In this document: positions 28,980-64,000 of the stretch, piece after piece
Layout of the letters: each line of letters opens with the position of its first letter
Numbering within the stretch: the first letter of the stretch is position 1
Program-made: the position numbers and the translations under genes
Source: Tetrahymena thermophila SB210
Lineage: Eukaryota; Ciliophora; Oligohymenophorea; Hymenostomatida; Tetrahymenidae
DNA length: 64,000 nucleotides
Assembly (NCBI RefSeq): GCF_000189635.1
Contig: NW_002476522.1
Location: 124,001 to 188,000 of the forward strand
Direction: 5' to 3'
Notes under the pieces: model-generated
Databases searched by the model: none
Told to the model about the DNA's origin: nothing
What the model saw: only the letters and a program-made list of their open reading frames with translations

Positions 28980-31900
28980 TCATTGTAACTAAAAATATTT
29001 ATTTATATTTATTTATTAAGAAAGATTTAAAATAAAATATGAAAATTTATTACATCCATAACCTTTTTGAGAAGGAACAGAGTCATAGAATCTATATATA
29101 TTTATATACAAAAAATTGTTTTATTTTAAATATAAAATTTATGTTAAAGTTTTTTATAAATAAATAATGAATGAATGAATAAATGTATACCTTCAGTAAG
29201 TCTCCTGTATGGGACAAGTTAAATAGCTTTCTTGATAACAAGATACTCTCTTTTAAGTTTATTGAGATAAATAGCTATCACAATAAAGAATATTAAAACG
29301 TAAACTAAACTTCCTAATGAAAGAATCAGGAGAAGAATATTGAGATAGTTATCTTTGATATTTACGTTTTGATTTTCAAACTAAACTACGATATAAGTCA
29401 TTACGTTAGTTAAGAGTTATTGAACAATCATACCATCTTGGTACTCTTGGCTTTAAATGAACATATTAAAATTATTATCAATATTCATTTCATTTTGGAT
29501 CTTTTGAATGATAGTTGAAACAGTTGGTTATAGCCCTTATGTGAGTATTCCTTGAAGAGCTGACTTACAGTAATCAATATAATTTTAGTCTAATATATTT
29601 TGTTCACATATATTTTATTAGCTTACTTTCACAATCATGTTTTAAAATTGGCTGGTACTTCCTTGCTATTGAAGTAATACAAATTACTAAGAAAAATACT
29701 GCTGACTTTATTACAATGATTGAGCTCTCAATTCAATCAGTTCATTAAGTTTTTCATCTGTTAAATACTCCATATTATTTTCTTTTAGCAGATTATTAAT
29801 TAAAATTGAGTTATGACTACTTGATGCTGTAGTGAATTGCATCGAACCTTATATAAACTATTTATACTAATTAGCAGGAGTACCAAATATGGATTCGAAC
29901 TGATTCAAGTAAATAAATATCTAATTTTTAAATAATAAAATTTGTCATCCAATCAAAATAATATTTTTAATCATATTTATTTAAAAATTTAATATTGCAA
30001 AAGTTAACTTACAAGTAATATTTATATTGTAAAATCGAATACATAGATAAAAGTTAAATAAATTTCCAAAGTATTTCATAAATAAATTTTGTATTAATAA
30101 TTGAAAGTAAAAATAAAATTACTATCAAGAAAAACAAAACTGAAAGAAGACAAAGGAAGATGAGGATGATTATGAAAGACCAAAACTTGAGTTTATTATC
30201 AAATATTCTATCATATAAATAGTTCTATCTTTGTTTATTTTTCTTCTTTTTTGCTCTTTGCGATTATTCAAGCTCATTTTCCTCTCTAAGAGCAAAATTG
30301 GAGAAATCTATGTGAAGATACTCATCATCATCTGAAAAGAGCTTGGCTTGTATTCCCTTTAAGTGGAATATAATATCACTAGTCTCTTCTTGTTTTAAAC
30401 GACTTACAATCATTAAAATTCTTTCAGATTTAAATTTTAAATTATTATAAGATGGAATAATGAATCCAAAGGATAGAATGATTAGAACAATAGCTAATAC
30501 AATACTATAAGTATTAACTACAATAATACTTGATTAAAGGCTACTAAGATCATCGCTTATGCTCTGCATTGATACAAGAAGATATGACTATGTACTGTTT
30601 AGATTGTTCACAAGAAGATACTTTTCTTCCAGAAAAACAGTAATTTAATCTAATTTTATGTTTTTTAAAATTAAAAAAAAAAAAGGAAAAAAGAAAAATT
30701 ACTTTAGAAATCGTTTCTGTTTAAGTTAAATAGCGAAGTGCCTACTTATTTTAAGTACTCTGTGAAATATAATTTAGTCACCAAATTTTATCTAAAAGAC
30801 ATCAAATAAGCATTTATCATCATGTTAAAAACAATTTTTTAATATTAATATTAAACTTATAAATCCAAGAAGTTAAATAAGTTATCAGAGTACTACTAAT
30901 ATCCACTTCGAGTTACTTCTTCCATAACATTCATATAGCTTTGAGAAGGAAGTGGACTCAGTTGATTCATATTTTTAAGAGAAGTTATATCTGATGTCAT
31001 CATAGCTTAATTTATAGGAATAAGCATTTTTGACGAACTTTAAAAAATAAAAATGATAATTATTTTAAGTTTTAAAATATTTTAATTTAATTAATTTCTT
31101 TCATTACCTTCCCATCCTATTTAGTGCTATTTTTATTTTAAAAAATTTAAATTAGTTTATAAATTTATTTAGAAAAATTAAAAAATAATTAATCATTTTT
31201 CAATACTGTAATTAACTTTATTTTTAAAAATTCAAGGTTTTATTAATTTTTAAGAAAATTCATTTTTAAGAAATTTTAAAAAAATAAATTTTATTAAAAA
31301 TTTATTTCATGAATATTTTAAAGATTTGTGTAAATATTAAAATCTAATAAAGAAATAAATTTGTTTAATAAATTTAAATGAATATTTGGAATAATAAATT
31401 AATACCTTAAGTATAACTGTTAAAGGAGTTAGAAATAGTAACTGATAGCACGACAACAACAGTTATGAATACAAAAAATTAAAATACAAAAACTCCATAA
31501 AGTATAACCAAGAAAGGAGGAGTAGACTTACTAGTTGTATTATCTATGATATGCTTTACAATGCTTGAAGATGAAGACTGCATAGAAGACTTAGAACCTT
31601 AATCAAATGGTAATTCGTTATTTCTTCCCATCTGTCTAATTAAATCATTTCCTATTTCTTTTTTACCATCATCAAATACAGATATTGATTCTTTTCCGTT
31701 ATTTTTAGAATCATGACCTTGAGAACTATCGTCGTCTTTTTTATATTTATCCATTTCTGCCTTTTGTTATCCCTAACTGAGATGCAAACCTGTTTCTTAA
31801 TTATCTTAATTAACTTAATTAGTTTATGAAAATTCACAATTTGTGGTATCTTCGACTTTGCTATACTTCATCGTTTTTGTTTTATTCAACTAAGCAACTA

Positions 31901-34900
31901 TTTCTTTTTCATCTTCATATTACTATGTTGTCATCATCAAAGTATTATTAATTGCATTAGTATCTAGTATATTCTCTTCCAATTTTTTATTGTCTAAAAT
32001 AGGCATATTTGAGTCATCTAAGTTGGCATAGTTTTGTAGTTTAGGTTGCAAGACAGTAGACTTAAAATTAGGATTCTTTTTGTCTAAATTATCGCAGCTA
32101 TCAATCTATGCACTTTTCGATCCTTAAATCTCGTTATCTTGCTTTAAGTCAATATGTTAATCTGTATTCAACAGGTTTATATTATCATGCTAACTATGTT
32201 AACTGTTAATTTGTCCCACTAATTAATGTGCCATAGTTTCTTAATGTGTAATTTAATGGTTTAAGTTATCTAGCTTAGCTATTTTTATTTAAACATTTAA
32301 TTCTAAAATTTATAACAAAAGCTATTTACTTTTATCGCTCTGTAAAACCCTTTAAGATTGTTTTGACCTTCCTCCAGTGCTGTTTGAAAACTCTGATTAT
32401 AACAAGTCATCCCAGTTAACATATTATTGAATTTCCAAAACATAGATCAATACGTCATCTCCATTATCTTAAAATAACTCATGTCTTACATTTAAAGTAA
32501 GTTCATAGCTACATAGCTTTTGCTAAACTCTCGTGTTTAGAAAAGATGAAACATTATTTTTCCATTCAGAATTGCTTTTTGTTGTCTTTTTCATTTCACT
32601 TCTACTTGAATTTTCCTTCCCTCTTTCTGTAGTTTATTAAGAGCTGTAGTAATTTGAATGATGGAGAATAAAAGTCTGAATTAGTTTATTCATATCTTTT
32701 ATTTATTAAAAATGAATTGAATCATTATGTTAAAAAGTAAAATTTTAAAGTTAAATAAATAAAAAACCTTTTGGCACGTCTAACTTGAATTTTAAGAATG
32801 AATATTCCTCTTTAAGGTTGAATTCTTGCATGAATTCAATGAATGAAGGAATAAGTGCAGATATGTTAAGCTTTTTGAAATATATGCTCTCAACATTTTC
32901 TCCTTAAATTAAATGTGCAAAACTCTCACTCATTCCTTCAATGTAGCCTTTTGAATTAAGTAAGACATACATATCATTTGAAGGGCAGTTAATAACTAAT
33001 GAGCTGAAAGCAAAATCATCCTGCTTGATAAAATAAAAATTGATAAAAAGTTTAACTCTGAATATATAGCCCATTTTATCTTTTGCAAACATAGTCCTAT
33101 AGTTTCTTACAGTTTTAGCTACACCTGTGTTAATAAGCCTCATTAAAAACTAATCATGCAACCTTCCTATACAATCAGGTATTAAGTCAGTCACACTTTC
33201 CTAAAATATAAAAATAACAATTAACAACTTTAAAATGATTTTAATTTAGCAAAGTTAGCATTAAAATTTACCTTTGTTTGGAATTCTCCTTTGTTGTATT
33301 TGAATATTTAGGGAATTTTTTCAGAGAATTTTAAAATCTTTCCATTTTCTTTGACGTTTTTAAAACTAGCAATAATGCTCCCAACATTACCTTACAAAAT
33401 ACTTAAGCTTGTGATAGTAGTTGTTTAATCAACTGACCTTTCTCTATTGATAATTTCTTCAACTGCAGCTTCTGTATCCCTACAATTGATTGGATCAAAT
33501 AATATGTAAGCCTTTAGCAATGAACTGAACTTGAGAAAATAAATGTTTTGCTTATTTTAATTCATTTAATGTTTTAAAATCTTCTCAAAATATTCTACTA
33601 AAAATAAAAAGTTAATAATCTTTTAGCGCATCTCCTCCAAAGATTTAAAGCCCTTTATCATTTCATCCATAAATGTACATTTTTCAACAATCAAATTGCC
33701 TAATTTATATTTTTTTTAGATGATAATAATTCAAAAATTATTATTTTAGTAATAAATTAATAAATAAATACCTAAAATTTTTTTTAATCTATCTTTTTCT
33801 GTTTCTGATTACACCATTTTATCAAATTTAATGTTATTAATAGCATCTTATCTATCTTTTTGGCTAATAAAATAAAAAGTTTAATCTCCTTTACCATACA
33901 AATTGTTATTTGTTTACCTGTAAGAATAGAAATGTGCTTTGTCTTTTTCTTTAATCTTACTTTCTATTAAATTAGTTAAACTTCTTTCTACAGTTTAGAA
34001 AAAGCTGTCTTTTCTCTTCAGCATTTGGTTCATAACTTTATTCTAGTAGAGTGCTTTAATTTAATTCTTTTTAAACTTAATCAAAAAAAACCAATATCTC
34101 AAGCACACCTCCTATATTAATATGAAACAATAGATAAATAAATAATTGCTATTTGCTTTTACATTTAAATAAATTAATTACTTGAACAATAACTTCTTGA
34201 CCTTTTTTAACTAGATGGCTGATTAAAACCTCAAATTAGTAATCGATGAAGAGCATAAACCACTTTTCAAATACAGCTTACTCATCACAAATTCTAGCAA
34301 AATCAACTCCCTTTATTTTAATGTCTTTTCCTAAATCAATAACCATTCCTCCAGAAATAGTTGGTCTTTCTTCGCCTTTATTTATTTATTTATTTATTTA
34401 TTTATTTGAATTTTAATAAATTTTAAAGTAAAATCGTACCAGCTAACTCATTAAATTAGGTATCTTTGCAAGGACAAAGAGTATCTCTGCAATTATTCTT
34501 ATGTAGTTAAAGCGAACCAAAGAGTATAAGCTTGCTGGAAAGTGTTGTACTGCTTTACTCAAATTGTTCACAAAGTTTCTCAAGATATAAGCAAGAAGCC
34601 TAAGGGAAATCTGTAAATTTATTTTAATAATATTTATTTATTTGTTATTTTATCTTTTAAAGAAAGCTGAATTAATAAAATTATTTTTATTTTTTACCTC
34701 CAAGCCTATTTGGATCAACTGTCATTGCAAATATAATCTTGTTATTCCAAAAAGTTTTGAGTATGCCATACAAAATAGAAATGATGAGTAAGAAAATAAT
34801 GGGGAAGTTTGCATCTTTTATGCTAGTTGTGTATTCTCTAAAAAGAAGCATTGAGGCATATGTCTGATATACAATTACCATCCATCCATAAATATCAGAT

Positions 34901-40800: not shown

Positions 40801-43800
40801 AGCTTAATTAGTTTATGAAAAATCGTATTTAGTGGTATCTTCGACTTTGGTATACTTCATTGTTTTTGATTTATTCAACTAAGCAACTAATTCTTTTTCA
40901 TCTTCGTATTATTATGTTGTCATCATCAAGGTATTATTAATTGCATTAGTATCTAGCATATTCTCCTCTAGTTTTTTATTGTCTAAAATAGGCATATTTG
41001 AGTCATCTAAGTTGGCATAGTTTTGTAGTTTAGGTTACAAGACAGTAGACTTAAAATTCGGATTCTGTTTGTCTAAATTATCGCAGCTATCAATCTATGC
41101 ACTTTTCTATCCTTAAATCTCTTTATCTTGCTTTAAATCAATGTATTAATCCGTATTCAATAGGTTTATATTATCATTTTGACTATGTTGAGTATTAAGT
41201 TGTCCTATCAATTAATTTGCCATAGTTTCTTAATGAGTGATTTAATAGTTTAAGTTATCCTGCTTAGCTATTTTTTAATAAAAATTGAAAAACTTAAAAT
41301 GAAAGCTATTTATTTATTTCTTTACTTTTATCGCTCTGTAAAACTTTTTAAGAATGTTTTGACCTTCCTCCAGTACTGTTTGAAAACTCTGATTATAATA
41401 AATCATCCCAGTTAACATATGATTGAATTTCTAAAATATAGATCAAAACGTCTTCTCCATTATCTTAAAATAATTCATGTCTTATATTTAAAGTAATTTC
41501 GTAGCTACATAGTTTTTGCTAAACTCTTGAATTTAGAAAGGATTAAACATTATTTTTCCATTCAGTGTTGTTTTTAATCGGCTTTTTGATTTCACTTCTA
41601 CTTTAATTTTCTTTCCCCCTTTCTGAGGTTTATTAAGAGCTGTAGTAATTAGAATGATGGAGAATAAAAGTCTGAATCAGTTTATTCATATCTTTTATTA
41701 AAAGTCAAGTTAATATACAAATCCTTCTATTAAAAAGTAAAATTTAAGGTAAATAAATAAATAAATAAAAAACCTTTTGGCACATCTAACTTGAATTTTA
41801 GGAACGAGTATTCCTCTTTCATGTTGAATTCTTGCATGAACTCAATGAATTAAGGAATAAGTGCAGATATGTTAAGCTTTTTGAAATACATGCTTTCAAC
41901 TTTCTCTCCTTAAATTAAATGCGCAAAACTCTCACTCATTCCTTCTATGTATCCTTTAGAATTGAGTAAGACATACATATCATTTGAAGGGCAGTTAATA
42001 ACTAGTGAGCTGAAAGCAAAATCATCCTGCTTGATAAAATAGAAATTGATAAAAAGTTTAACTCTGAATATATAACCCATTTTATCTTTTGCAAACATCG
42101 TCCTATAGTTTCTTACTGTTTTAGCTACACCTGTGCTAATAAGCCTCATTAAAAACTAATCATGCAACCTTCCAATACAATCTGGTATTAAGTCAGTCAC
42201 ACTTTCCTATAGATGTAATATAAAAATAGTGATTAACAGCTTTAATTAATATTACTTTAATTTCGCAAAATTAACATTTATTTATTTACCTTAGTTATGA
42301 ATTCTCCTTTGTTGTATTTGAATATTTAGGGAATTTTTTCAGAGAATTTTAAAATCTTTCCATTTTCTTTGACATTTTTAAAACTGGCAATAATGCTCCC
42401 AACATTACCTTACAGAATACTTAAGCTTGTGATAGTAGTTGTTTAATCAACTGACCTTTCTCTATTGATAATTTCTTCAACTGCAGCCTCTGTATCCCTA
42501 CAATTGATTGGATCAAATAATATGTAAGCCTTTAGCAATGAACTGAACTTGAGAAAATATATGTTTTGCTTATTTAAGTTCATTTATTCTTTTAAAATCT
42601 ATTCAAAATATTCTACTAAAAATAAAAAATTAATAATCTTTTGACGCATCTCCTCCAAAGATTTAAAGCCCTTTACCATTTCGTCCATAAATATACATTT
42701 TTCAACAATCAAATTGCCTAATTTATATAAATATTTTAATTATTTATTAATAATTATTCACAAATTTATTAATAAATAAAAACCTAATATTTTTTTTATT
42801 CTATCTTTTTCTGTTTCTGATTACACCATTTTATCAAATTTAATGTTATTCATAGCATCTTATCTATCTTTTTGGCTAATAAAATAAAAAGCTTAATCTC
42901 ATTTATCAATTATTATTTGTTTACCTGTAAGAATAGAAATGTGCTTTGTCTTTTTCTTTAATCTTACTTTCTATTAAATTAGTTAAACTTCTTTCTACAG
43001 TTTAGAAAAAGCTGTCTTTTCTCTTCAGCATTTGGTTCATAACTTTATTCTAGTAGAGTGCTTTAATTTAATTCTTTTTAAATTTAATCAAAAAAAACCA
43101 ATATCTCAAGCACACCTCCTGTTAATTTGAAATAATTAATTAATTACTTTTTAATTTTTCATTTAATAAAATTAATTAATTACTTGAACAATAACTTCTT
43201 GACCTTTTTTAACTAGGTGGCTGATCAAAACCTCAAATTAGTAATCGATGAAGAGCATGAACCACTTTTCAAATACAACTTACTCATCACAAATTCTAGC
43301 AAAATCAACTCCCTTTATTTTAATGTCTTTTCCTAAATCGATGATCATTCCTCCAGAGATAGTTGGTCTTTCTTCACCTGTATTTATTTATTTATTTTTT
43401 TAATTTAAAAAAATAAATTTTCAACTAGAATTATACCAGCTAACTCATTAAATTAAGTATCTTTGCAAGGACAAATAGTATCCCTGCAATTATTCTTGTG
43501 TAGTTAAAGCGAGCCAAAGAGGATAAGCTTGCTGGAAAGTGTTGTTAAGCATTACTCAAATTGTTCACAAAGTTTTTCAAGGTATAAGCAAGAAGCCTAA
43601 GGGAAATCTATTTATTTATTTATTAAAATGTTTTTTTGCTTATGCTATGTTTAAAACTAATTGAAATATTAAATAAATTATTTTATTTTACCGCCAAGTC
43701 TATTTGGATCAACTGTCATTGCAAAGATAATCTTGTTATTCCAAAAAGTTTTGAGTATACCATACAATATAGAAATAATGAGCAAGAAAATAATTGGGAA

Positions 43801-46751: not shown

Positions 46752-48037
46752 ATGATACATTAATTAAGGTAGAAGTTGACAAATTTGGCTTTTTTAGCAA
46801 AACAAAGATAAAGGAGCCTACTTTTTAGATCAACTAACTATTCATTCTTTTCAAACATAAACAATTAGAAGAATGAATCTCTATTGAACGCCAAAGTAGA
46901 TTTTAAGTCTTTAACTAAAATAGAAATAGCTGATTATTTGAGGAAGCTAAATTAAGAATGCACTATGACTGACAAGAATAAATAAGTGTTAGCGAATAAA
47001 CTAAACAATATAGAATAACAAGCAGCTAATCATATTAGTTTAAATTAAGATGATTTAACAAGTCTTATCTTAATTCTTTAGATTATGTTTCAAAACTAGA
47101 GATAGAGCTAAAATATCCTTAATTTGGCTCATACTGTTTTATTGAATTATTTTTCAAAATAAATGAATATGTAGAATACATCTGCATAAAAATTTATGGA
47201 AAGTCTCCATGTTTTCCAATAAATAGTTCCTTTGATAGCAAAAAGCGATAAATTTGAATATGAATTAGTTCAAAAATTGCATTTATTTTTTAGCTAAGAT
47301 TAAGTTTTAAATTAGTTTACTCAAACAAGCTTGCTGCATTTGATTAAGTTTTTCTTTTCAAAAGGTATAATTGAGATCCCCTTAAAAATAAATATCAACC
47401 CAGAAAGCTTACCATTTTAAGAGTTAGTTGAGTATATATGGATGACTTCTCTTTCTGGTGCATAGATTACTCAAGATTAAACTAAAATATTGTGTAAGTT
47501 TTTATAGGAACAGGTAAAATTTATAGGTTTACTTCAACAAAACATAATTTTTTTATTTTATAATAGCCATCTATTAAGAATATTCCAAAGGCTATTTAAT
47601 ATAAGCTAAAAGAAATATCAATTAGCTCTGATTTGGGTGAAGCAAGCAAATATATTTCTCAATTTGATCATTTTTACACCTAAGAAAGCTAAGTATCTCC
47701 AATTCAAGAAGACTGCGAAATTATTTTAAAAGTTCTCAAGTGGAATTTTAAATCAGAGGTTAGAATTGATCCATATACAGTAGATTTTTTAATTACTTTA
47801 CCAAGCATTAAAAATTAAATAGTGCTTGAAATGAATGGGCCATCTCACTATCCTTATTTTTCAAATAAAGATGTATTTTCTGCTAAAGAACAAATGAAAG
47901 TTAAAAACTTAAAGATAAAAAATTATATACCCGTTCTAATCCACCATCAAGACTGGAGTTAAATTAAAGGAGTCACAGGAAAAATAGATTTCATACAAAA
48001 TTTAGTTTAAAAGCACATTAAATAAACAAACTTATGA
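46752..48037 (+). CDS. RAP-domain protein, probably mitochondrial
   Basis: Two exons (46752-47513 and 47567-48037) give 410 aa. The start is chosen because this frame gives an Arg/Lys-rich, acid-free leader (MIHQLRQKLTNLAFLAKQRQ), typical of mitochondrial import. An earlier ATG at about 46692 is in another frame that soon stops. The middle is a helical, leucine-rich region. The C-terminus holds the RAP domain: DPYTVDFLITLPS, then IVLEMNGPSHYPYFS, then YIPVLIHHQDW, matching the family's VDF and E-x-DGP-x-HF signatures. RAP proteins bind or process organellar RNA, so a role in mitochondrial RNA maturation is likely. The gene converges on the Leo1-like gene with 186 bp between stop codons. Confidence 0.85.
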
Positions 48038-49841: not shown

Positions 49842-51600
49842 TCACTGCTCTTTTAATTTATTTACACTAGAATTTGTATTTATTTATTTATTATAATTTT
49901 TATTTATGAATTACTCAGTTTCAAATTTAAGATCCAAAGACAATCTTTCATATCTAAAAACTAAAACTAAAATTAATATCAGAGAAATATTTGATTAGAT
50001 TAATATTATTTGTAAGAGGGTAATAGATGGATGCAACATTTGCTCAGCTCTTTTTAAAAATTATTAATTAAAATTAGAAAATTAATTTATAAAAAGAATA
50101 AATAAATACCCTGGAAACTAAAGTTCACCTTGGAGTGGATTGAATATTATACTATTCTAAATTATTTGTCTAAATCCAAAAAGCAAATATGATGAAGAAG
50201 TATTAATTTAGCACTACCCTTAATAGCCTATAAACATAAACTCTGCCAAAGGGATGCTAATCTTATACTGGCTAGTATATATATATAAACTTGGAAATTA
50301 TGATGCACATTCACATGAAAAACAATTAGTTAATTATGTGTATGAGTTTGAAAAGTATTCACTGTATTTATCCTTTAAATATTTAGCTATTTCTTATTTT
50401 AATTTTAAAAGAATTTAATTTTGACCGGCGATTTAAAATAAAATGTATCTACTTATAGGAAGAGCTGAGTAAGTATAAGTTTGAATTATAAAATTTTTAA
50501 AATGAGCAATAGCTGTCATGTCAGTATCTCCTAAAAATATTCCAGCCATTTATACATCCTAGAGTAAAAAAAATTAATTTTATAAAACCTCTAAATTAAA
50601 TAGATGTATGTATGTATGCATAAATGTATAAATTTACCCAATTGTTACTAGAATAAGTCTTTAATATAGGATAAGAAATGTTGGTTGTAATATTATAATT
50701 TATTTCAAATAAATCATTTGAATTGAAAGTGCTTCCACTTATTTAAAAATTAGGACTCTAATAAATTAATAAATAAATAATAAAATAATTTAACGTAGTT
50801 TATTTGATAATTTGTTAAATATAATTTACAATTAGTTAGTTTTACTAGTATCCTTATATAAAAATGTTATTTTTATTTCCATTTGCTAAATTTAGAAGTC
50901 CATTTCCTATCTATAGAAATTGATATGAAAAAAAATAAATATTTTTTTAAATGTTACACATATTTTTTGAGTAAGTTCATTGACAGAAATAAATTATAAT
51001 TAAATAGAAGTGTCGTTATCTTCAGAAAGGATAAAGCTTTCAGATTCTAAATCTCCTTTGATAATGAATTTTTCTTGAAAATTCTTTAGAAAAAAAAAAT
51101 TAAAAAAAATATATTTAATTAATTAATTAATTAATAATGAATGGATGAAGAACTGTATACTTAAGTGTAGTCTTTTTGTATTATTTATAAAGTTGTTGAT
51201 TATTCCTCTTCAAAATACCAAACTGGCTAGTAATTTAGTGGCAATTAATAATCTGAATTCAAATCACAGTAGCCTTAATATGGTAATCTTGAATTGAAAA
51301 CAAAGTTCATAGTGTCTGCCAAGGGTATTTATATAATCTATAATATTTATATATCATTTTTATTTTTAGTAGATTATTTATTTATTTTTTGTTAATTACT
51401 GGATTAGAAAGAATGAAACTAATTAAGATAGTTTACTATGGATATCCTATTCTAATGCTAATCTAACAAATAAGAACCATTTAATCTCTAAAGTCTTTTA
51501 AAGTTTTGCATTTTTCAAAGGAAAAGGGTATTTTATTTGAAAAGGTGCTTTAGATAACACATATAAAAATAAATACTGTAAGAAATAACTAACTACGCAT
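49842..51600 (-). CDS. Secreted, membrane-anchored A1 aspartic-protease-like protein, probably inactive (array member 1)
   Basis: About 8-9 exons encode a protein of roughly 400-430 aa. The signal peptide is MRSQLFLTVFIFICVIQS. The pepsin N-lobe landmark IRIGYPQQTILIS is followed by FILSNP instead of FDTGSS, then a Cys-containing strand after MNFVFNS. The C-lobe reads DVQMAGIFLGD, AHFKNFIIQTYTYSALP (pepsin has AIVDTGTSL here), and CFSCECASQFPSLYIYT. It continues with YKISIPLAEF, GQCQI, and LLFGFRQIIQNSIIFNPLQ, the place of WILGDxFLRxYYxVFD. A C-terminal TM helix (IILIQSNISLILILVLVF) and a short charged tail follow. Both catalytic Asp-Thr-Gly motifs are missing, so peptidase activity is unlikely. 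Neighbours at 53005, 56465, 59733 and 61745 are homologues on the same strand. Confidence 0.75.
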
Positions 51601-53004
51601 TCAATATGTTAGCTAACTAATGTTAAATTAAAATTCTAGACTACAAAAGCTATTTATCTAAAATGTAAACTGTGATATTTACTTATTGCCTATGATAGAA
51701 CTTAAAAAAATTTATTAACTGAATAGTATATTTGTTTTTATATTGATTGTAATTTTTTTTCAATAATTTATTTATTTTAATTTTTTTTATGAATTTGCAA
51801 ACTTGTTTTTTATTTATATTATTGTGTATTATTTCTAACTCTGGAAAATAAGAAGTTAATTTTTTTAATTAATATATGAATAAATAAAATAAAAGTAGAA
51901 TTTATCAGAAATTAATAATTTAAAAAACTTAATGACACTAAAATTTTATTGCTTGCAAGTAGGTTTGATTACAATTTTTATAATTGTTTTGTGCATATAA
52001 GTAAAAATAATTGATTCAAGCAGTGTTTGATATATATTTCTTTTAGAGTAAATGAAGAAAAAGCTTTGATAGAAAAGTATAAAAATAGATTTTCAACTAA
52101 GATAACTAAGATAAACTAAATATGTATAATAAAAATCCTTAAAATATAATTAATCATTTAAAAATTACTCAATTTTTTAACAACTTTAAATATTATTATT
52201 TCATTTTTAATGAACTAATCATGCTTGTCCTAAAAATACTGATGAAAATTGTAAGCTTTTAGTTACATTTATTCAATTGAAAGAAAGGGGAAAAAAAATC
52301 AAATTAATTTATAGCTAGTAAATGTATAAATATTAATGTAATGAAAATAAAAATACTTTGGATTTATTTTTCTTATTTTAGAATCTATCATAAAAAAAAG
52401 ATTATTGATAGTAAAGAAATCATAGTTTTATAAATAAAAACAAGCAAAATACACTGACTAAAATATAATTTGTAAAAGTAGAATATCAAGATTTTAAAAA
52501 ATATAATTATAATTAAAAACTTTTCAATGGAATATCACCTTTTGTTAGGTATTTAGGTTATATAAATTAATTTTATTAATTTAAAATTATTTAACTGAGA
52601 AAATCTAAACCGTTTTCACTTTAAAATTTGGTTTTTATTAAATTTTATTAATTCATTTTTTAGCTTAGTTAATCAAGATAAGTAGAAATAAGAAAAGTTC
52701 AAAAAGTTTTTAAATTTGATTAAATAAAAATACTAAATGATACTATAGGCACATTGGGAATAAATTAAACTTTTTGGGTTTGGTTTGAGTCTGTGACTAA
52801 TACTTTTACAAAACAAAAAAATATTTTTATTTAGGGTGTCAATAAATTAATTAATGAGAATTAATTTACAGTTTGTTTGTAATAAATATCATAGCATTTA
52901 TTTTATTATTGGACATTTTTTTTTATGATTAAAAGTTTTTGAAGAAAACATAAATTATAAAATGAATAACTATTTTATACAAGTAAAATATAAATGACAT
53001 AATA
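51601..53004. other. Intergenic spacer within the protease-like array
   Basis: A+T-rich with no supported frame. It separates array members 1 and 2 and should hold the promoter of member 1. Confidence 0.55.
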
Positions 53005-54704
53005 TCATTTTTGTTATTATTTAGCAATTCTAACAAGTTATAAATAATTATTTTTTTTATCAATATATTATTCAGTTTCAAATATAAGGTCTAAAGAATT
53101 TCTTTCATATTTAAAAAGTAATCCTAAAATAAATATAAGCCAAATATTTGATTAAATAAATATTATCTATAAGAGAGTAATAGATGGATGCAACATTTAT
53201 TTAGCACTTTTTTAAAAAACATTATTAAGATTTGATAATATATTAAAATTAAGAATAATTAATTACCCAGGGAACTAAAGTTCACCTTGAAGTGGATTGA
53301 ATATTACGCCATTGAAAAGTATCTGTCTGATACCAAACAATAAATTTGAAGAAGAGATATTAATTTAACACTAATTATTTGTGTTTGTAAACAGAAACTC
53401 TTCTAATGGAATATTAATTCTATACTCGCTTGTATATACATATAAATTTGGGAATTATGATGCACACTCACAACCAAAACAATTTATCAATGTAGTGTAT
53501 GAATCTGAAAAATACTAACTGTATTTATTCTTTAAATATTTTGCAATGCCTAATTTAAATTAAATAACTAATAAATATTTACTAGTTGAAATAAAAATAA
53601 AATTTACTAATAGGAAGGGCAGAGTATACATAAGTTTGAATAATAAAAGTCTAGTAATGAGCATAGGCTACCATATCCATATCTCCTAAAACCAATCCAG
53701 TCATTTGCACATCCTAAAGCAATTAAATATAAATTTTTAAAGATTGTTATATTAGAGGAATATATTTATTTATTTATTTACCCATTTATTAGTCGAATAA
53801 GTTTTTATAATTGGATATATAGTATTGCTTGTTATATTATAATCTATTAATAATTTAGCATTAAAAATGTCAACACCAAATTAAAAAATAGGACTCTAAT
53901 AAAAAAAAATTAATTTTAATTTTTGTTTATATTAAATAATTAATTTTACTATTAGCTTATTCTACAGATAGCCTTATATAAATATACCATTTTGATTTCC
54001 ATTTACTAAATTTATAAATCCATTTCCAACCTAAATAAATAAATCAATAAAATAAATTTAAATAAAAATATTTATTTTAAAGAATATTTATTACATATTA
54101 TGTAGTAGTAAAATTGTAGACAGAGATAAATTCCAATTAAATAGGTGAATCATCTTGAGAAAGATAAAAATTGTCTGATACTAAATTGCCTTAAATAACA
54201 GAGTATTCATCTAAGTCCTATATAAAAGTCAAATATATAAATGTTAGAAAGATATTTTAATTAAGTATTATTTACTTTAGTGTAGTTTTTTTAAATAGTT
54301 TATAAGCTTAGTGACAGTTTTTCATTAAAAAAGTGTAATTATTGAGGCTATGGATTCTCAAATTCACTTGAAGCATATTTGCACTTATTTTAAAGTGAAC
54401 ATTCTGTATTGAAAACAAAATTCATTGTGTCTGCAATAGGTAAGCTCAACTATTAATGTTAAAAATTATTATTGATGAAATTAAAGATAATTTTTTTGAA
54501 TACAGGATTTGATAAAATAAAGCTCATAGGCTGTTTTTACTTAGGGATTCCAATGTAGACATTAGACATGCAAGTAAAAACCATATTGTCTCTGAAATCT
54601 TTGAATATTTTACATTCTTAGATAGAAAAGGATATTTATTTTGTATAGGCATATTAAATAGCTAATATAAAGGCAATCATAGCAGAAAAAAACCAAGTAC
54701 TCAT
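53005..54704 (-). CDS. A1 aspartic-protease-like membrane protein, probably inactive (array member 2)
   Basis: It has the same exon layout as its neighbours. The start MSTWFFSAMIAFILAI is a signal peptide. The N-lobe carries VYIGIPKQKQPMS and FILSNP, then after a phase-0 intron LSLPIADTMNFVFNTEC. The C-lobe has DVQMTGLVLGDMD and TFIIQTYVYSALP, so Gln again stands at the second catalytic Asp. A C-terminal TM helix (IIFIQSNIWLIFILGLLF) and a charged, Gln-rich tail end at TGA 53005-53007. An ADT triplet near the first active-site region occurs here and in member 1 but not in the members at 56465 and 61745. It is displaced from the usual spacing and not followed by Gly, so I do not read it as a working catalytic Asp. 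Confidence 0.75.
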
Positions 54705-56464
54705 TTTAATAACTAATTCTATTTTAATAAGAAGTTTTATCAGTTAATAATTATTTTTAAAAATCAAATGTTATTTAAAAATTTCTTATTGTTTGATTGT
54801 ATGTATGTATGAATATATGAATGTAATCATTTACATTAACTCTTCGTTTGTAGACTTTTTATGAATCCAATTAATTTGGATTGAGTTTATTTGAAATTTA
54901 AAAATGTAAATAAATTAATCTTATACAAAATTTATTATAAGATTAATCATATATAAATATTAGGGCTGAAAAATTTATTTTTGAAAGAATATTTTTGCTA
55001 AATTAGTATTTGAATAAAAAATTATATATGATATAGAGTGTAATCAATTATTCATAAAAATTAAAAATGTTTAGTTTATTTTATGTATTTAGTAATAGTT
55101 GCATAATTTACTTGTTTTTTTGCTATTTTAATACATTCATAATTAAAAATGTCAAATTATATAGAAAAAATAATATAGAATGTATCTCAAAGAAAGTATT
55201 GGGGAATCTTTTAAAAAGCGAAGAAAAGAAAAAAAAATCAGAATTAATTAAAATTGAGGCAAATTTTAAATTAAAAAAAGAAAAAATTTATCAGATTAAC
55301 TTTTTATAGAAAAATTAAATTTTGTTACAATTTTTAAAAAGAGTCTTATTTACTTTTAAAAATGAACAAAATATTTAATGAAGCTCTATACAATAGACAA
55401 AACTTTTTCATAAAAAAATTTAAATTTTTCAAAAAGCTTTTTTGAAGTGAAAAACACTTTTTAAACTAAAAACAATAGACCAAATTACATGTAGAGCAAC
55501 AAATGAATTTTACTATTTAATAAAAACTAATTGCTACAAACTGAGTCCACAAAGTTTTTATAAATATTTCACATAAAATATAAATAATATTTATTGGATT
55601 AACTTAAATATATTGGCTAAGCATGAATCTTCATTACTAATTAAATAAATAAATAAATATAATTTCGCTTTATATAAATAAATGAAAATAATCTCTACAT
55701 TATATTTTAAACTTTTTAAAAATATTTAGAAAAATAAGACATTTTTTATCAAATAAATTCAGTAATATCTTCAAAGCTAAAATTTAAAGCACTAAATGAT
55801 GCTTAATATTTTAAATGTGTAAAAATTTATAGTAATAATAATGAACAATGTATACTCTTATTATAATTGAGAAATACTAATTTCAAATTTAATAAAAAAT
55901 AGCCTAAGAAATTAGATAAAATAGAAGAAAGTATTAAGAACCGAAGTAAATAAACAAACAAGTTAAATTTAAAAAAAAAATAATTTATTTTTTATATAAA
56001 TCTATGAGACAGACTAAACAAGTCGTATAAGTATATAAATAATTTATTTATTCCTTTAATTTAGAAAAAAGCATTAATTATATAAACTATTATATGGTAA
56101 GCTATTTATTTATTTATTTATTAATCTAATAATGATTTAAAAAGATATGCAGAATTTATATTTATGCTTTTTATATTAGTTAAATAAATACATAAATTAT
56201 TGTTTTACTACATACATATAAAGGGAAATAGAGGTAAATATTAAATTTTTTATTTAAAACTTGATTAATATTTGTATTTCGAATGTAACTTATAATTTTT
56301 ATTAAAAACATACAAAAAAACTGATTATTTTTTAAGATAAAATTTATGTAAATAATTAAATTTTATGTAATATAAATAATATATTTTAGCAAGGATGAAC
56401 TTTAATAATTAATTAATTAAATGGAAGTTTACAGTGAATATATTAATTAAAATAATATTAATAC
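54705..56464. other. Spacer within the array; a weak 104-codon frame at 55067-55381 (+)
   Basis: The only frame worth noting begins MFSLFYVFSNSCIIYLFFCY and continues Lys-rich to TGA at 55381. It has one hydrophobic N-terminal stretch, no recognised domain and background-like codon use, so it is doubtful as a gene. Sequence from about 56365 to the right belongs to the 5.3-kb duplication. Confidence 0.35.
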
Positions 56465-58900
56465 TCACTTTGCCTATTCTTTAATTTATTTAACTTATTT
56501 AACGATATTTTATAATTCGATATATTTTTTAATATCAAATTGCTTAGTTTCCAATTATAAATCTGTTGATACTCTCTCGTATTGAATCAACAAAGCTAAA
56601 AGTATAGCTATACAAACATTTGATTATATTAATATTATCTAAAAGTAAGTTATGGATGGATGCTACATTTGTTCAGCTCTTTTTAAAAAAAAAAAAAATT
56701 TATTAACATAAGCTAAAAATTAAATATTTGAATTACTCTGGAAATTAAAGTTCACTTTGTAGTGGATCAAAGATAACATTATTCAAAAGTATTTATCTAA
56801 TACCAAATAGTAAATTTGACTATGAAATATTAATTTCGCATTAACCTTAAGTATTTGTAAATGTAAATTCTTCAATAGGGATAGTAATCTTATATTCAGT
56901 TGTGAATATTTCTAAATTAGGAAAATTCTTTTCACAGTTACATTAAAAGCAATCTAACAAAACATATGCATCATCTTCGTTATCAAAATTTTCATTATAT
57001 TTATTTTTTAAATATTTAGCAATTTCTTTTGTTAAAAAAAAATAAATTATAAAATAAATAAGTCTAAATCTAATAATTAATTACTTTTTGGAATAGCTGA
57101 ATAAACATATGTCTGTATTATAAAAGTTCTATAATGAGCTATTGCTTCCATATTTTGGCCTCCTAAAGAAATTCCAACCATTTGCACGTCCTAGAGAAGA
57201 ATTAAATTAATATTTTAATTATCTAAATAAATTGTTTAAGAAATTACCCAAATATTATCTGAATATGTTTTTAGTGCTGGAAAAGAAGAATCTCTAGCAA
57301 AATTGTAATTTATCTTTAATCCATCTAAATTATTACCACGATTGAACTAAAATAGTGGAGACTTTTTAAAGTAAAGTAAAATAATTTAATTTTTTAAAAA
57401 AATTAATTAAAAATGATTTACAATAAACTTTTTCTGAAGATAACCCTGCAAAAAAATGCTGTTTTAATTACCATTTTGCAAATTAAAAACACCGTTTCCA
57501 ACCTATATTAATGGATAATTAATTAATTATTTAATAATATAAAAATATATTTTTTAGAATAGTACATATTGTTTTTAAGTGTAGTTGCGAATAGAAATAA
57601 ACTGCAATTAAATTGGAGAATCATTTCTAAATAGGTAAAATTATTCTGTATCTAAATCACCTTAAATTATTTGTCCTTCTAGTAAATTCTTTTATTAAAT
57701 TATTTAATTTTTTATAAAAATATAATTATTAAAATTAATGTTACATTTGTGTAGTTGGTTTATATAACTTATAAACTAGTTGAAATTCTTTCTTGATAAA
57801 AGTGTTGCGCATACTGTAAATTATGTCTAGCATATGTGCAATTATTTTAAATAGAGCACTTTGAGTTAAATACAAAATTCATTTTGTTTGCAATTGATAA
57901 ACTCAGCTTAATTTAAAAAATAAATTTTAATAAAGTTAAATATTTTTATTAATTAATTAATTAATTAATTTACTGGATTTGATAAAATTAAACTAATTGG
58001 TTGTCTTTGCTTAGGATTACCAATAAGCATTTCAAATGCACAACTAAAAACTTACTATCCTCGAAAATCTTAGAATATCCTACAATTTTATTATGGGAAT
58101 TATATTGATCTAGACTCAACATATTCAATAGTTAATATAAAAGCCAGTAAAGCAGATGCAATCAAACGAATCATTAAATAATTCTATTTTAATTTTAGTT
58201 ATTTTTTTTTATTTGAGGCTAGCAATCTTATTTTTAAAAATTTAATTACAAAAATATTCATGTTTGCTTATTTAGCTTTTATACTTGCTTTAAATTTCTA
58301 GCTAATTTATTTATAGATCTTTTGTTCTAATGAAATGAAATCGATAAATTATATTTCTGAAATTTAAAAGTTTTCTTAGATTTTTAAGGTAGAACATAAT
58401 TAGTTTGGTACTTTATGATTTTCATTAATAATTAATGAATAACTAAACTATTTATAGTTATTAAATTAAAATCTGACTTACTATTAAGCTAGAACAGGTA
58501 TATTTTAAACATAAAATCATTATAGTTTTGTAAGTTTTATTGTTTATGTAACAAAAATAAGAAAAATTTAAATTTTACTTAAATCAAGATGTTATTTATG
58601 GTAAAATATATATTGTTAATTCATTTAAATACATTTAATTATATGACTTATCTTTAAAAACAAAGAGTTCATTTACATTTCTTCATAGTAAATAAATTTT
58701 CAACCAATTATCATACTAATTAGATTTAAATTAAATTAATATCTAAAAATAATTATCAATGAAAATCTTTATAATCAATCATAAAGAATATGTTTATACT
58801 TTAGATAAAATTAAAAATTAAACCAGTTATAATTATTTAATTAGAAATATACTTATTATATAGAACAGTAGAATTAAAATAAATCATAAAAGTTCTATAA
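56365..58900. repeat. Recent direct duplication, copy 1 (about 5.3 kb offset)
   Basis: From a block containing ATATATTTTAGCAAGGATGA at about 56380, the sequence is nearly identical to that starting at about 61665. Coding, intron and upstream spacer sequence are all included. The match continues to the right edge of the window (64000 matches about 58740). Confidence 0.9.
56465..58174 (-). CDS. A1 aspartic-protease-like membrane protein, probably inactive (array member 3)
   Basis: The signal peptide is MIRLIASALLAFILTI. The mature part starts near RSIQFPQQNCRIF. Landmarks follow pepsin order: MLIGNPKQRQPISLILSNP, then LSLSIANKMNFVFNSKC, GQIIQGDLDTEQFYL, and VGNGVFNLQNGNQNSIFLQG. The C-lobe continues with DVQMVGISLGGQN, YRTFIIQTYVYSAIP, CFQCNCEKNFPNLEIF, EYKITIPIEEF, GQCEI, and LLFGIRQILLNNVIFDPLQ. 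A TM helix (LIQSNVCIAILLALLI) and a charged tail follow. No DTG motif is left in either lobe. Secretory-pathway or cell-surface placement follows from the signal peptide and TM segment. Function is unknown; a binding or scaffold role for a dead protease fold is inference. Confidence 0.8.
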
Positions 58901-59732
58901 ATTTTATAGCTTATGTAAGAAAAATAGAAAAATAATTTTAAATAGGTCAAAATTTTATTTATGATTAAGAAATAAATTTTAATTCATTTTAGATACATTT
59001 TTATTATTTAATCTAAATAAAAAAGCAAAGAATTAAATTCCTTTTTGTTTAATATATAAATAAATTATCTACTATCTTGCTTAATTTAAAATAAGCTTGG
59101 AAGATTTGAATTAAATTACTGATCTCTTTTTGCTTACTATAGTTTTTTAAGAAAATAATTAAAGATTAGAATTAATCACAAATAAGAAATAAATATCAAT
59201 ATCACAGAAAAACCATTAATTAATTTATCATATTAACTAAAAATGATAAAGAATCTTGTAGAAAACATTAATAGCTTTATAAAGTATCTAACTTTGATTT
59301 ATTTATTTATTTATTATATTGTATCTATGAAAATAACATTTGAGCACATTGTATTAACAAAAATAAAAGAATAATAAATGAAATTTATATATGAGCATGC
59401 ATGAAGTTTTTCATTTGTTTACAATATTTCTTCAAACTAATTATTATTTTCATATCTATTAAAACAATTTTTGCAATTTTTACATAAGTAAGATACGTTT
59501 GTTTTTAAAAAATCTATGATTTATATATTAAAAGGATAAAAATATATATATATTTGCAAGATTATTTAATAATAAATTATTATTTTTGAATTTTAAATAC
59601 TGATTCAAGCAAGTATTTAAGATTCAATCAAGAATATAGAAATTTATTTAATTAATTAACATTTATAATTAATTTACAAAATTATTTTAAGTTTAATTTT
59701 AAATAATTTAGAACTTATTTTATTATTCCCTT
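58175..59732. other. Spacer within the array
   Basis: No coding frame is seen. The left part (to about 58900) is repeated at 63440-64000. A weak internal repeat relates about 58490-58700 to 58862-59045; both begin TAGAACAG and share a TTTAxxxTTATGTAA block. Confidence 0.55.
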
Positions 59733-61330
59733 TCAAACTATGTTACTAATTATTTGGTTTTACTTGCTTGAAAAACATAGATTGCTAAAGTTTTCTATAC
59801 ATATTTCTTTTTATAACTACATTAACTCACTAATAATTTAATTTTTTTAAGCTGATATTTTTGATTGATCAGATTCCATTTATTTATCTTAGCTTTATTG
59901 TGTTTCTATTAATTTATTATTTTGATTGAAAATTTATTTCATTTTATCATTTTCTTCCAGTAAAGAGATATATTTAGTATTTAATTTAATAAACAGTAGA
60001 ACTAAAAGGCATATTTAAGTCTATCCAATAAAAAATATAGGATAATACAAAAATATAGAAAGGTACTTCATTGAATACTCTCTTTAGAAATTATAATTAA
60101 TAAAATTAAAAATCGCATTATAGTAATTATTTCGGGAACTAAAGAGTGCTATTTATTTAGTGGGTCAAATACTATGTTTTGATTTTAGATTTATTAAATG
60201 CCAAATAATAGATTTGTTTTTGAAACATTTATTTTGCATTCTTAATCACCATTTTTATAATAAAAATAACTAATAGGTATAACAAGTTTATATTCCTTTG
60301 TATAAATAACTATGTCTACAAACGATATTTCTTTTAAACATAATTCTAAGATTAGTAAATTATATCTTCCACCCTTTAAAAAGTATTTGCTTTATTCCTA
60401 GTTAAGAAATTCAAGTACTTCTTTATTTAGATAAAAATGTATGGTCTTTTATAAAATTCATTAATAAATAATTAATTTACTTCTTGGAGAGCAGAGATAA
60501 CATAAAATTTAATGATAACTGTCTGAAAGTGTGCTAACGGCAGAACATTTACGTTTTCAATATACATTCCTACCATTTAAAAATCCTTTATGCAAATTAT
60601 AATTTATTAATTAATTAACACTTCTGAATTATTGATCTCACATAATATATTTGAAAAATTCTATTCATAAAATGAATGTAAAATTTAGAATATTCAAAAT
60701 ATATTTCTGATATTTTTATTCTAATTAAAGATATTCTTTGATCACTGTTATAAATATAATTATTATAATTTTTACCCAAAGTTATTTGGAATATGTTGGT
60801 AAAGCAGGTAGTTGCTCTAAGCTTTAATCAGTATAATTAAATCTTAAATCAGTTACTCCTGATTTATCATAGCTGAATGAAAATTTTGGAGTCTTTATTA
60901 TAAAACAAATCAATTAATTTAAAATATTTTTAATATAATTTACAATTAACTTTTTCTATAAATATCCTTAAGTGAAAATGTTATTTTAATTGTTACTAGA
61001 TAAGTCTATGATACCGTCATTCAGCTTATTAAATGTTTACTTTTTCTTATAAATTAAAATGACTGACATAAACAAAATTCAATTCCATTGATATATCACT
61101 TGGAGAGAATTTAACTTGGTCAGCCACAGTATTTCCATTAAAGATTTAATTTTCTATTCTATTCTTTAAATATTAAAGAAATTAGTAATGCGATTTATAA
61201 TTAAAAATACAACATTTGGGCCTTTGTTCATTATTGACCTAAGAGTTGATGATTTTTTTTCTTCATAGAATAAATTAGCAATCGCTAAATTGCTCAAGAT
61301 TTTCAGAACTAAATTTATAGACTTTTTGTA
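59733..61330 (-). CDS. Divergent, apparently 5'-truncated A1 protease-like gene (array member 4)
   Basis: The C-lobe is intact and recognisable: DFQMVGMYIENVNVLPLAHF, TVIIKFYVISALQ, EYKLVIPISYFYYKNGDQEC and LLFGIQQIQNQNIVFDPL. Here Lys rather than Gln stands near the second catalytic position. After the TM helix (GQTQICLLVLLFIKL) the frame runs on to a much longer charged coiled tail (LEENDKMKQIFNQNNKLIE), ending at TGA 59733-59735. At the 5' side, FYEEKKSSTLRSIMNKGPNV matches the middle of the N-lobe. No signal peptide or IG.PKQ segment is found to its right, so the first exon seems lost or too diverged to see. The 5' boundary given is approximate. It may be a pseudogene or use an undetected upstream exon. 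Confidence 0.5.
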
Positions 61331-61744
61331 AAATATTCATTCAGTTTTTCTCTTTAATTAAGAGTAAATTGCTTTAAAGAATTATTAATTTAAAGAAAAT
61401 CAGAAGTAAAAAAATTATATATAAAATTAGAAGATATTTAACAGAATATTTATAATATAAAGAATAAATTAAAATATAACAAATTGAATAATTATAAGAA
61501 TAATAAATAACATTATAAATATAAAATGAAGATAAAGATAAAAAAATTTAATAATAGTTATAATAAAAGATGATTTAACAAAATAAGCATATTAAATTTA
61601 TCAAATTGGTGGTGGTTAAAATATTCATTATATTGGTTAAATAAAAGATTTTATGTAATATAAATAATATATTTTAGCAAGGATGAACTTTAATAATTAA
61701 ATGGAAATTTACAGTGAATATATTAATAAAAATAATATTAATAC

Positions 61745-63439
61745 TCACTTTGCCTATTCTTTAACTTTTTTAATGATATTTTATAATTCGATATATTTTT
61801 TAATATCAAATTGCTTAGTTTCCAATTATAAATCTGTTGATAATCTCTCATATTGAATCAACAAAGCTAAAAGTATAGCTATACAAACATTTGATTATAT
61901 TAATATTATCTAAAAGTAAGTTATTGATGGATGCAACATTTGTTCAGCTCTTTTTTTAAAAAAAATATTTATTACCGTCAGCTAAAAATTAAATATTTGA
62001 ATTACCCTGGAAATTAAAGTTCATTTTGAAGTGGATCAAAGATAATGTTATTGGAAAGTATTTATCTAATACCAAGTAGTAAATTTGACTCTGATGTATT
62101 AATTTTACATTGACCTCTTTCATTTGTATATGTAAATTCTTTAATACGGATAGTAATCTTATACTCAGCTGTGAATATTTCTAAATTAGGTAAATCCTTT
62201 ATGCAGTTACATTAAAAACAATTTGACAAAACATATCTACTAGCTTCGTTATCGAAATGTTCATTATATTTATTTTTTAAATATTTAGCAATTTCTTTTT
62301 TTTAAAAAAAATAAATTATAAAATAAATAAGTCTAAATCTAATAATTAATTACGTTTTGGAATAGCTGAATAAACATATGTCTGTATTATAAAAGTTTTA
62401 TAATGAGCCATTGCTTCCATATTTTCGCCTCCTAAAGAAATTCCAACAATTTGCACATCCTAGAGAAGATTTAAATTAATATTTTAATTATCTAAATAAA
62501 TTGTTTAAGAAATTACCCAAATATTATCTGAATATGTTTTTTGTACTGGTAAAGAAGAATCTCTAGCAAAATTGTAATTTATTCTTAATCTTTCAAAATT
62601 ATTACCAGCATCGAACTAAAATAATGGAGACTTTTAAAGTAAAGTAAAAATAATTTAATTTTAAAAAAATAAATAAATAATTAATTAAATATTATTTACA
62701 ATAAACTTTTACTGAAGATAACCCTGCAAAAAAATGCTGTTTTAATTGCCATTTTGCAAATTAAAAACACCGTTTCCAACCTATGTTAATAAATAATTAT
62801 TTATTAATATAAATATATATTTTTTAGAATAGTACATATTGTTTTTCAGTGTAATTGCTAATAGAAATAAACTGCAATTCAATTGGAGAATCATTTCTAG
62901 ATAGGTAGAATTATTCCGAATCTAAATCGCCTTAAATTATTTTCCCTTCAAGTAAATTCTTTTATTAAATTATTTAATTTTTTATAAAAATTTAATTTTA
63001 AAATTTATGTTACATTTGTGTAGTTGGTTTATATAATTTGTAAACTAGTTGAAATACTTTCTTGATAAAAGTGTTGTCCATACTGTAAATTATGTCTAGC
63101 GTACTTGCAATTATTTTAAATAGAGCACTTAGAGTTAAATACGAAATTCATATTGTTTGCAATATGTAAACTCAGCTTAATTTAAAAAATAAATTTTAAT
63201 AAAGTTAAATATTATAATTAATTAATTAATTAATTTACTGGATTTGATAATATAAAACTGATTGGTTATCTTTGCTAAGGATTACCAATAAACATGTCAA
63301 ATGCACAACTAAAAACTTCTTATCCTCGAAAATCTAAGAATGTCCTACAATTTTATTATGGGAATTATATTGATCTAGACTCAACATATTCAATAGTTAA
63401 TATAAAAGCCAGTAAAGCAGATGCAATCAAACGAATCAT
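61745..63439 (-). CDS. A1 aspartic-protease-like membrane protein, probably inactive (array member 5)
   Basis: It is a near-identical copy of the gene at 56465-58174, with the same signal peptide, exon borders, TM helix and tail. Small replacements occur (for example in the GQN/AHY loop and around the Cys-rich C-lobe strand), and the frame stays open in all exons read. The second-lobe active-site region keeps the FIIQTY type of sequence. Member 5 is the right-most complete gene of the array in this window. Confidence 0.75.
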
Positions 63440-64000
63440 TAAATAATTCTATTTTAATTTTAGTTATTTTTTTTATATTTGAAGCTAACAATCTTATTTT
63501 TAAAATTTAATTACAAAAATAATCATGTTTGCTTATTTAGCTTTTAAATTTTTTTAAATTTCTATTTAATTTATTTATTGATCTTTTGTTCTAATCTAAT
63601 GAAATCGATAAATTATATTTTTGAAATTTAAAAGTTTTCATAGATTTTTAAGGTAGAACATAATTAGTTTGGTACTTTATGATTTTCATTAATAATTATA
63701 AACTATTTATAGTTATTAAGTTAAAATCTGACTTACTATTAAGCTAGAACAGGTATATTTTAAACATAAAATATTAATAGTTTTGTAAGTTTTATTGTTT
63801 ATGTAACAAAAATAAGAAAAATTTAAATTTTACTTAAATCAAGATGTTATTTATGGTAAAATATATATTGTTAATTCATTTAAATATACTTAATTATATA
63901 ATTTATCTTTAAAAGCAAAGAATTCATTTACATTTCTTCTTAGTAAATAAATTATCAATCAATCATCATGCTAATTAGATTTTAATTAAATTAATAGCTA
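63440..64000. other. Spacer at the right edge
   Basis: This is upstream sequence of array member 5, nearly identical to 58175-58740. There is no coding frame. Confidence 0.7.

What the first reader, a model, noticed from the sequence alone, without database searches (positions are those of the whole stretch)
49842..63439. Tandem array of five pepsin-like genes that lack both catalytic motifs
Five minus-strand genes share signal peptide, IG.P.Q strand, Cys-rich C-lobe, LLFG..Q...N..F.PL block and a C-terminal TM helix. Together these trace a complete A1 aspartic protease fold with a membrane anchor. No member keeps a DTG/DSG in either lobe. An expanded family of membrane-anchored pseudoproteases could be a surface-binding or ligand-recognition system and appears undescribed to me.
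Basis: partly seen in the sequence, partly recalled or inferred. Interest (0 to 1): 0.82.

Follow-up and report, generated by a model that had tools for sequence, protein, structure and literature searches.

The report
Dead membrane-anchored pepsin-like gene array
A ciliate genome carries a tandem array of membrane-anchored relatives of the digestive enzyme pepsin that have lost both catalytic residues and are probably kept as proteins that bind rather than cut.

Summary
Four complete minus-strand genes (A, B, C, E), each with eight exons and seven matching introns, encode 426-433-residue proteins with two pepsin-like lobes and one C-terminal membrane helix. The fifth, D, is a 5'-truncated copy at a duplication junction. 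The array runs past the window end (two more genes and a decayed copy), and six more members lie on two other contigs: 12 in all, not counting D. None has D[ST]G in either lobe, and no minus-strand frame of the array encodes that triplet. Pepsin (A1) family membership rests on profile comparison with nine active paralogues (E 7.6e-13, score 102; 30 shuffles at most 20), Pfam hits at or above cut-off in 5 of 9 members scanned, and BLAST similarity of the contig-C129 members to an active membrane-anchored protease. A second inactive lineage (12 loci) groups with it, and two further genes lost the second motif separately. Selection is mostly purifying. Structure jobs never returned, so the fold is not confirmed. 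Ligand binding in the dead cleft is inferred. Ten literature searches found no description of the family. Dead A1 proteins are known elsewhere, so this is a new variant of a known kind.

The parts
49842..51600 (-). Gene A: complete, 8 exons, 433 aa, A1-like pseudoprotease with C-terminal membrane helix
   Evidence: Spliced model and exon list; no acidic residue at either mapped catalytic position
53005..54704 (-). Gene B: complete, 8 exons, 427 aa, same layout
56465..58174 (-). Gene C: complete, 8 exons, 429 aa, same layout; PF00026 21.3 bits over the C-lobe
59943..61315 (-). Gene D: 5'-truncated copy, lacks signal peptide and IG.P.Q exon
   Evidence: Aligns from guide residue 91 only; DNA similarity to F stops at 61296
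61745..63439 (-). Gene E: complete, 8 exons, 426 aa, same layout; PF00026 19.9 bits (equal to the cut-off)
56349..58745 (.). Duplicated block holding gene C, 91.2% identical to 61638-64000
61638..64000 (.). Duplicated block holding gene E (partner of 56349-58745)
58648..61296 (.). Duplicated block holding truncated gene D, 89.6% identical to C51:187903-190492 outside the window, which holds gene F

Best explanation
The genes encode type I membrane proteins that descend from a pepsin-family (A1) aspartic protease and are catalytically dead: both catalytic aspartates are replaced, while the two-lobe sequence pattern, most disulphide cysteines and a membrane anchor are kept. Inferred step: the old substrate cleft serves as a pocket that binds a peptide or protein on the cell surface or inside an endolysosomal or secretory compartment, held there by the C-terminal helix, with tandem duplication supplying variants. 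Shown: gene models, family membership by sequence, loss of both motifs, hydrophobic C-terminal helix, separate losses of catalysis in this genome, mostly purifying selection. Not shown: fold, location, ligand, expression.
For: psA profile against nine active A1 paralogues: probability 97.8, E 7.6e-13, 290 columns, score 102; 30 column shuffles at most 20.2, reversed 18.2; the four window genes alone E 2.8e-6, score 52.9 against at most 25.9. PF00026 at or above cut-off in 5 of 9 psA members scanned. BLAST of the five C129 members against active C160: E 4.9e-8 to 4.4e-6 at database size 1e7. No acidic residue within three of the mapped lobe-1 Asp, and no Asp around the lobe-2 position, in 12 of 12. 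C-terminal hydrophobic stretch in 12 of 12. dN below dS in 8 of 8 pairs, significant in 4 of the 5 pairs tested. C160 itself is active by motif and has the same C-terminal hydrophobic stretch.
Against: No structure: both jobs were unfinished. A, B, D and K give no PF00026 match, the genome-wide PF00026 search lists no match in the array, and E, C, F and G have no BLAST hit to the nine active genes. PDB profile hits are all A1 proteins but not significant (E 0.14-0.33). No data bear on binding, location or expression. J/K does not differ significantly from neutral (p 0.10).
Confidence: 0.5

Rival explanations
1. They act on the active A1 proteases of the same cell, as decoys, assembly partners or regulators, rather than as receptors for other ligands.
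For: The same genome holds active A1 genes, one of them (C160) with the same membrane-anchored layout; inactive enzyme homologues that regulate active cousins are described for other peptidases (abstract start of PMC11266112, seen in the listing).
Against: No co-location, co-expression or contact data; psA and the active genes lie mostly on different contigs.
Confidence: 0.2
2. They are a displayed surface coat or antigen family, where the fold is only a stable, disulphide-bonded scaffold and nothing is bound in the cleft.
For: Tandem copies, membrane anchor, conserved cysteines, 2-6 N-glycosylation motifs per protein.
Against: dN is below dS in all eight pairs, with no tested sign of diversifying selection; location unknown.
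Confidence: 0.15
3. The array is drifting: recent duplicates with little or no function.
For: D is truncated and a copy near C51:193000 is decayed; recent pairs have dN/dS 0.46-0.66; J/K is not significant.
Against: Four complete genes with intact splice sites and frames; dN below dS in C/E (p 0.003), F/G, I/J and A/B.
Confidence: 0.1
4. They are still proteases using other residues.
For: In the five C129 members a Glu lies one residue before the mapped lobe-2 position.
Against: No acidic residue within three of the mapped lobe-1 position in 12 of 12; the window genes have none at either position.
Confidence: 0.03

Closest known systems
Active membrane-anchored A1 protease of the same genome (C160:491193-492569)
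   Same: IG-strand start of lobe 1, the cysteine-rich LP-x-I C-lobe stretch, C-terminal hydrophobic helix; BLAST E 4.9e-8 with member K
   Different: Keeps DTG and DSG, one open frame without introns; AU test rejects psA plus C160 as one clade (p 0.0125)
Pregnancy-associated glycoproteins of mammals
   Same: Multigene A1 family with members presumed inactive that keep a peptide-binding cleft (passages of PMC6221303)
   Different: The isoform read about keeps both catalytic Asp; secreted, no membrane anchor (recalled)
Bla g 2 of cockroach
   Same: [quoted passage not shown] two of the four PDB sequences hit by the psA profile (E 0.3)
   Different: Soluble and secreted (recalled)
TAXI-type xylanase inhibitors of plants
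   Same: A1 fold turned into a binding protein (recalled)
   Different: Neither TAXi Pfam model matched any of the nine psA members scanned; soluble plant proteins (recalled)
Second inactive lineage of the same genome (psB, C5 type)
   Same: Two lobes, no D[ST]G in the four used in the tree, C-terminal helix; groups with psA at 100/98
   Different: Open frames without introns where read in full; lobe 1 YFGT/FFGT/QFGQ; an Asp kept near the lobe-2 position

Membership tests
Peptidase family A1 (pepsin-like), as a homologue | Sequence similarity to A1 over both lobes | tested here: met
   hhalign 290 columns, E 7.6e-13 with controls; PF00026 at or above cut-off in 5 of 9, over both lobes in F and M
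Peptidase family A1 (pepsin-like), as an active peptidase | One D[ST]G in each lobe | tested here: not met
   0 of 12 psA members have either motif; 9 of 9 active comparison genes, chosen because they carry it, have both
Peptidase family A1 (pepsin-like), as a homologue | Bilobal pepsin fold | not tested
Membrane-anchored A1 pseudoprotease | Signal peptide and one C-terminal membrane helix | tested here: inconclusive
   C-terminal hydrophobic stretch in 12 of 12; N terminus passes the same cut-off in 3 of 12 (E, C, A); other starts hydrophobic by eye; start not modelled in H and M; no signal-peptide predictor
TAXI-type inhibitor (TAXi_N / TAXi_C) | Pfam TAXi match | tested here: not met
   No TAXi match in 9 psA members at E up to 10

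The most novel reading that the evidence does not exclude
A ciliate has turned the pepsin fold into a large receptor system: two related lineages (12 members and 12 loci) of membrane-anchored dead proteases, with the catalytic centre of the window lineage replaced by mostly hydrophobic residues, that bind peptides from prey, mates or other cells, with tandem duplication generating specificities.
Probability: 0.12. Interest if true: 0.75.

Novelty: new variant of a known kind. Interest (0 to 1): 0.5.

Why it matters
Dead proteases kept as multigene families let one ask what an old active site is used for once cutting is lost. This family sits in what appears to be a genetically tractable ciliate, beside active relatives, one with the same membrane-anchored layout. 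Catalysis seems to have been lost more than once here (one inactive clade rejected, p 0.00056), so cause and consequence can be tested by tagging and gene removal.

Tried and rejected
Rejected: (a) alternative exons restoring DTG: no D[ST]G in the three minus frames of 49842-63500. (b) Five equal genes: D is truncated. (c) Chance profile similarity: shuffles and reversal score far lower. (d) One clade of all inactive genes: rejected, p 0.00056. Led nowhere: PDB searches with protein K (an unrelated terpene synthase at E 0.83) and with alignment A1 (nitrogenase and candidapepsin-2, E 0.37 and 0.91); structure prediction (both jobs unfinished), hence no fold search; the CTH3 aspartyl cathepsin paper is not held. 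Relatives outside this genome were not sought: the collections offered hold prokaryotes, viruses, phages and plasmids.

Limits: the 12 counted members leave out D and the decayed copy near C51:193000. H and M lack a modelled start; F and G have an uncertain exon boundary near residue 230; the tails of I and Lx were cut at an early TGA. For F, G, I, J, K and Lx the typed proteins use exon junctions that I chose by hand and differ from the script's own output (marks them DIFF); dN/dS used the script's output, which may hold some intron codons. C51:324401-325572 is cut by the locus edge. The nine active genes were picked because they carry D[ST]G. The lobe-2 Asp maps to I, F or L without gaps from the conserved Trp, but to Gln in gene E in hhalign's gapped alignment. 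Site counts for the Fisher tests were worked back from rounded proportions.

Full report
SETTING. The window is positions 124001-188000 of contig C51 of a genome of 101,022,631 bases in 445 contigs. Its genes read through TAA and TAG as sense. A RIB43A protein of this genome matches PDB 6u0u_A without a substitution across the core of its two aligned stretches, exon edges apart. I recall that entry as Tetrahymena thermophila, so I treat the organism as that species or a very near relative; no call names it.

THE GENES. Gene E was spliced by hand and the others by a spliced-alignment script. A, B, C and E each run from ATG to TGA with seven GT-AG introns of 47-79 nt. Exon 1 is 201 nt in all four; exons 4 (81 nt) and 6 (106 nt) also agree (coordinates). 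The proteins have 426-433 residues; C, B and A are 86, 56 and 51% identical to E. D aligns only from residue 91 of its guide sequence.

ARRAY HISTORY. Window 56349-58745 (gene C) is 91.2% identical to 61638-64000 (gene E), and 58648-61296 (gene D) is 89.6% identical to C51:187903-190492 (gene F). I read this as tandem duplication of a unit of about 5 kb holding a C/E gene and a D/F gene, with D cut short at the junction. Past the window the array goes on with F (C51:190883-189091) and G (196666-194838) and a decayed copy near 193000.

OTHER MEMBERS. Searches of the same genome with C, A, K and H add H on C220 and I, J, K, Lx and M on C129. With A, B, C, E, F and G this makes 12 members, called psA. 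Intron places were compared in 10 of the 12: the seven of the window genes coincide in place and phase (A's first by one column); J and K share all seven within one column and have three more each; H and M share six of seven; F shares four and G five exactly, with the rest 6-10 columns off in models whose boundary there is unsure.

CATALYTIC MOTIFS. None of the 12 has D[ST]G; the nine active comparison genes, chosen for having it, have it in both lobes. Counted without gaps from IG.P.Q, the lobe-1 Asp is I in A, B, C and E, F in genes F and G, V in H, and A in the five C129 members, with no acidic residue within three positions in 12 of 12. Counted from the Trp before lobe 2, the second Asp is I, L or F, with no Asp nearby in 12 of 12; the five C129 members have a Glu one residue earlier. 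hhalign places a gap there and aligns a Gln of gene E with the Asp. No minus-strand frame of 49842-63500 encodes D[ST]G.

FAMILY MEMBERSHIP. Profile against profile, psA (12 rows) and active A1 (9 rows) align over 290 columns: probability 97.8, E 7.6e-13, score 102. Thirty column shuffles reach at most 20.2, the reversed alignment 18.2. The four window genes alone give probability 88.4, E 2.8e-6, score 52.9, against at most 25.9 in shuffles. PF00026 reaches its cut-off (19.9) in C (21.3), F (29.1) and H (21.8) and equals it in E and M (19.9), but is absent in A, B, D and K: 5 of 9 scanned. The genome-wide PF00026 search at E 0.001 lists 65 matches, none in the array. BLAST against the nine active genes, database size set to 1e7, gives 4.9e-8 to 4.4e-6 for the five C129 members with C160, 0.015-0.063 for A, B and H, and no hit for E, C, F and G. 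A profile of 9 of the 12 lists four PDB sequences at E up to 10, all A1 proteins (candidapepsin-2, Sapp2, Bla g 2 twice), E 0.14-0.33, not significant alone.

CYSTEINES. Eight cysteines outside the helix recur in E, C, B, H, J, K, I, Lx and M; A lacks one of them. F and G keep four, matching 84, 90, 291 and 325 of E. That 31/45 and 288/293 are missing together suggests disulphide pairs; this is inference.

TREE. With 27 proteins, psA is one side of a branch (100/99), so are the four psB rows (100/100) and psA with psB (100/98). psB was found with C5 as query: 12 loci at E under 1e-20 on C5, C153, C180, C313, C134, C17, C127 and C328, and a weak thirteenth. The four read in full (C5, C180, C313, C17) lack D[ST]G; lobe 1 has YFGT, FFGT or QFGQ, and an Asp stays near the lobe-2 position (FDQ, LDQ, IDQ, FDE). 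psB aligns with active A1 at E 3.7e-10 (score 81.2; 30 shuffles at most 22.5) and with psA at E 3.6e-15. Two genes in the active cluster of C51 (324401-325572, cut by the locus edge, and 329236-330572) keep DTT in lobe 1 and have lost the second motif. Holding all inactive genes together is rejected (AU p 0.00056), as is psA with C160 alone (p 0.0125). Taking activity as ancestral, catalysis was lost at least twice. Long branches (C85, C9, C122) leave single active genes loosely placed.

SELECTION. dN/dS (NG86, code 6) is 0.54 C/E, 0.33 A/B, 0.27 B/C, 0.48 F/G, 0.66 J/K, 0.46 J/Lx, 0.53 I/J, 0.56 K/Lx. Fisher tests on five of these eight: C/E 0.003, F/G 3e-5, I/J 3e-4, A/B 3e-17, J/K 0.10. Three of eleven 40-codon windows of C/E (codons 201-320) exceed 1 on very few synonymous changes; I conclude nothing from them. 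C/E introns are 82-98% identical.

FOLD. Neither had finished. The fold claim rests on sequence.

WORKING. Two lobes, a membrane helix, a short tail, a dead centre and kept cysteines fit a binding protein made from a membrane-anchored protease. Binding in the old cleft, and the place in the cell, are inference from other dead A1 proteins: passages on pregnancy-associated glycoproteins describe a member assumed inactive with a peptide-binding cleft (PMC6221303); passages on Bla g 2 call its function unknown (PMC9541408).

LITERATURE. Ten searches of the open-access library listed no paper on this family by title or abstract start; most listed papers were not opened. I saw passages only of PMC3341644 (protease counts in ciliates), PMC9159632 and PMC4978903 (references to the aspartyl cathepsin CTH3), PMC2636879, PMC6221303, PMC8621943 and PMC9541408.

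VERDICT. Dead A1 proteins are known in mammals and insects and plants (recalled). What differs here is the membrane anchor, the loss of both catalytic Asp in every member, the tandem array and the related second family in one genome.

Noticed in passing
G000 contigs C5, C153, C180, C313, C134, C17, C127, C328; L061-L066: A second inactive A1-like, membrane-anchored gene family (12 loci at E under 1e-20), apparently without introns where read in full, related to the window family.
   Followed up: partly
L054 and L055 (C51:324401-325572 and 329236-330572): Two genes in a cluster with two active A1 genes keep an Asp in lobe 1 (DTT) but have lost the second-lobe motif: a separate loss of catalysis on the same contig.
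   Followed up: partly
window 58434-58704, 58809-59072 and 63688-63956: A stretch of about 270 bases upstream of genes C and E is itself repeated, about 73% identical.
   Followed up: no
window 31263-33320 and 41595-42338, minus strand: Two long frames begin with nearly the same residues (KNSLNIQIQQRRI) and have no Pfam match: another possible duplicated gene of unknown kind.
   Followed up: no
window 10593-11796 (+) and 47432-48034 (+): Kelch-repeat exons and a RAP-domain exon.
   Followed up: no
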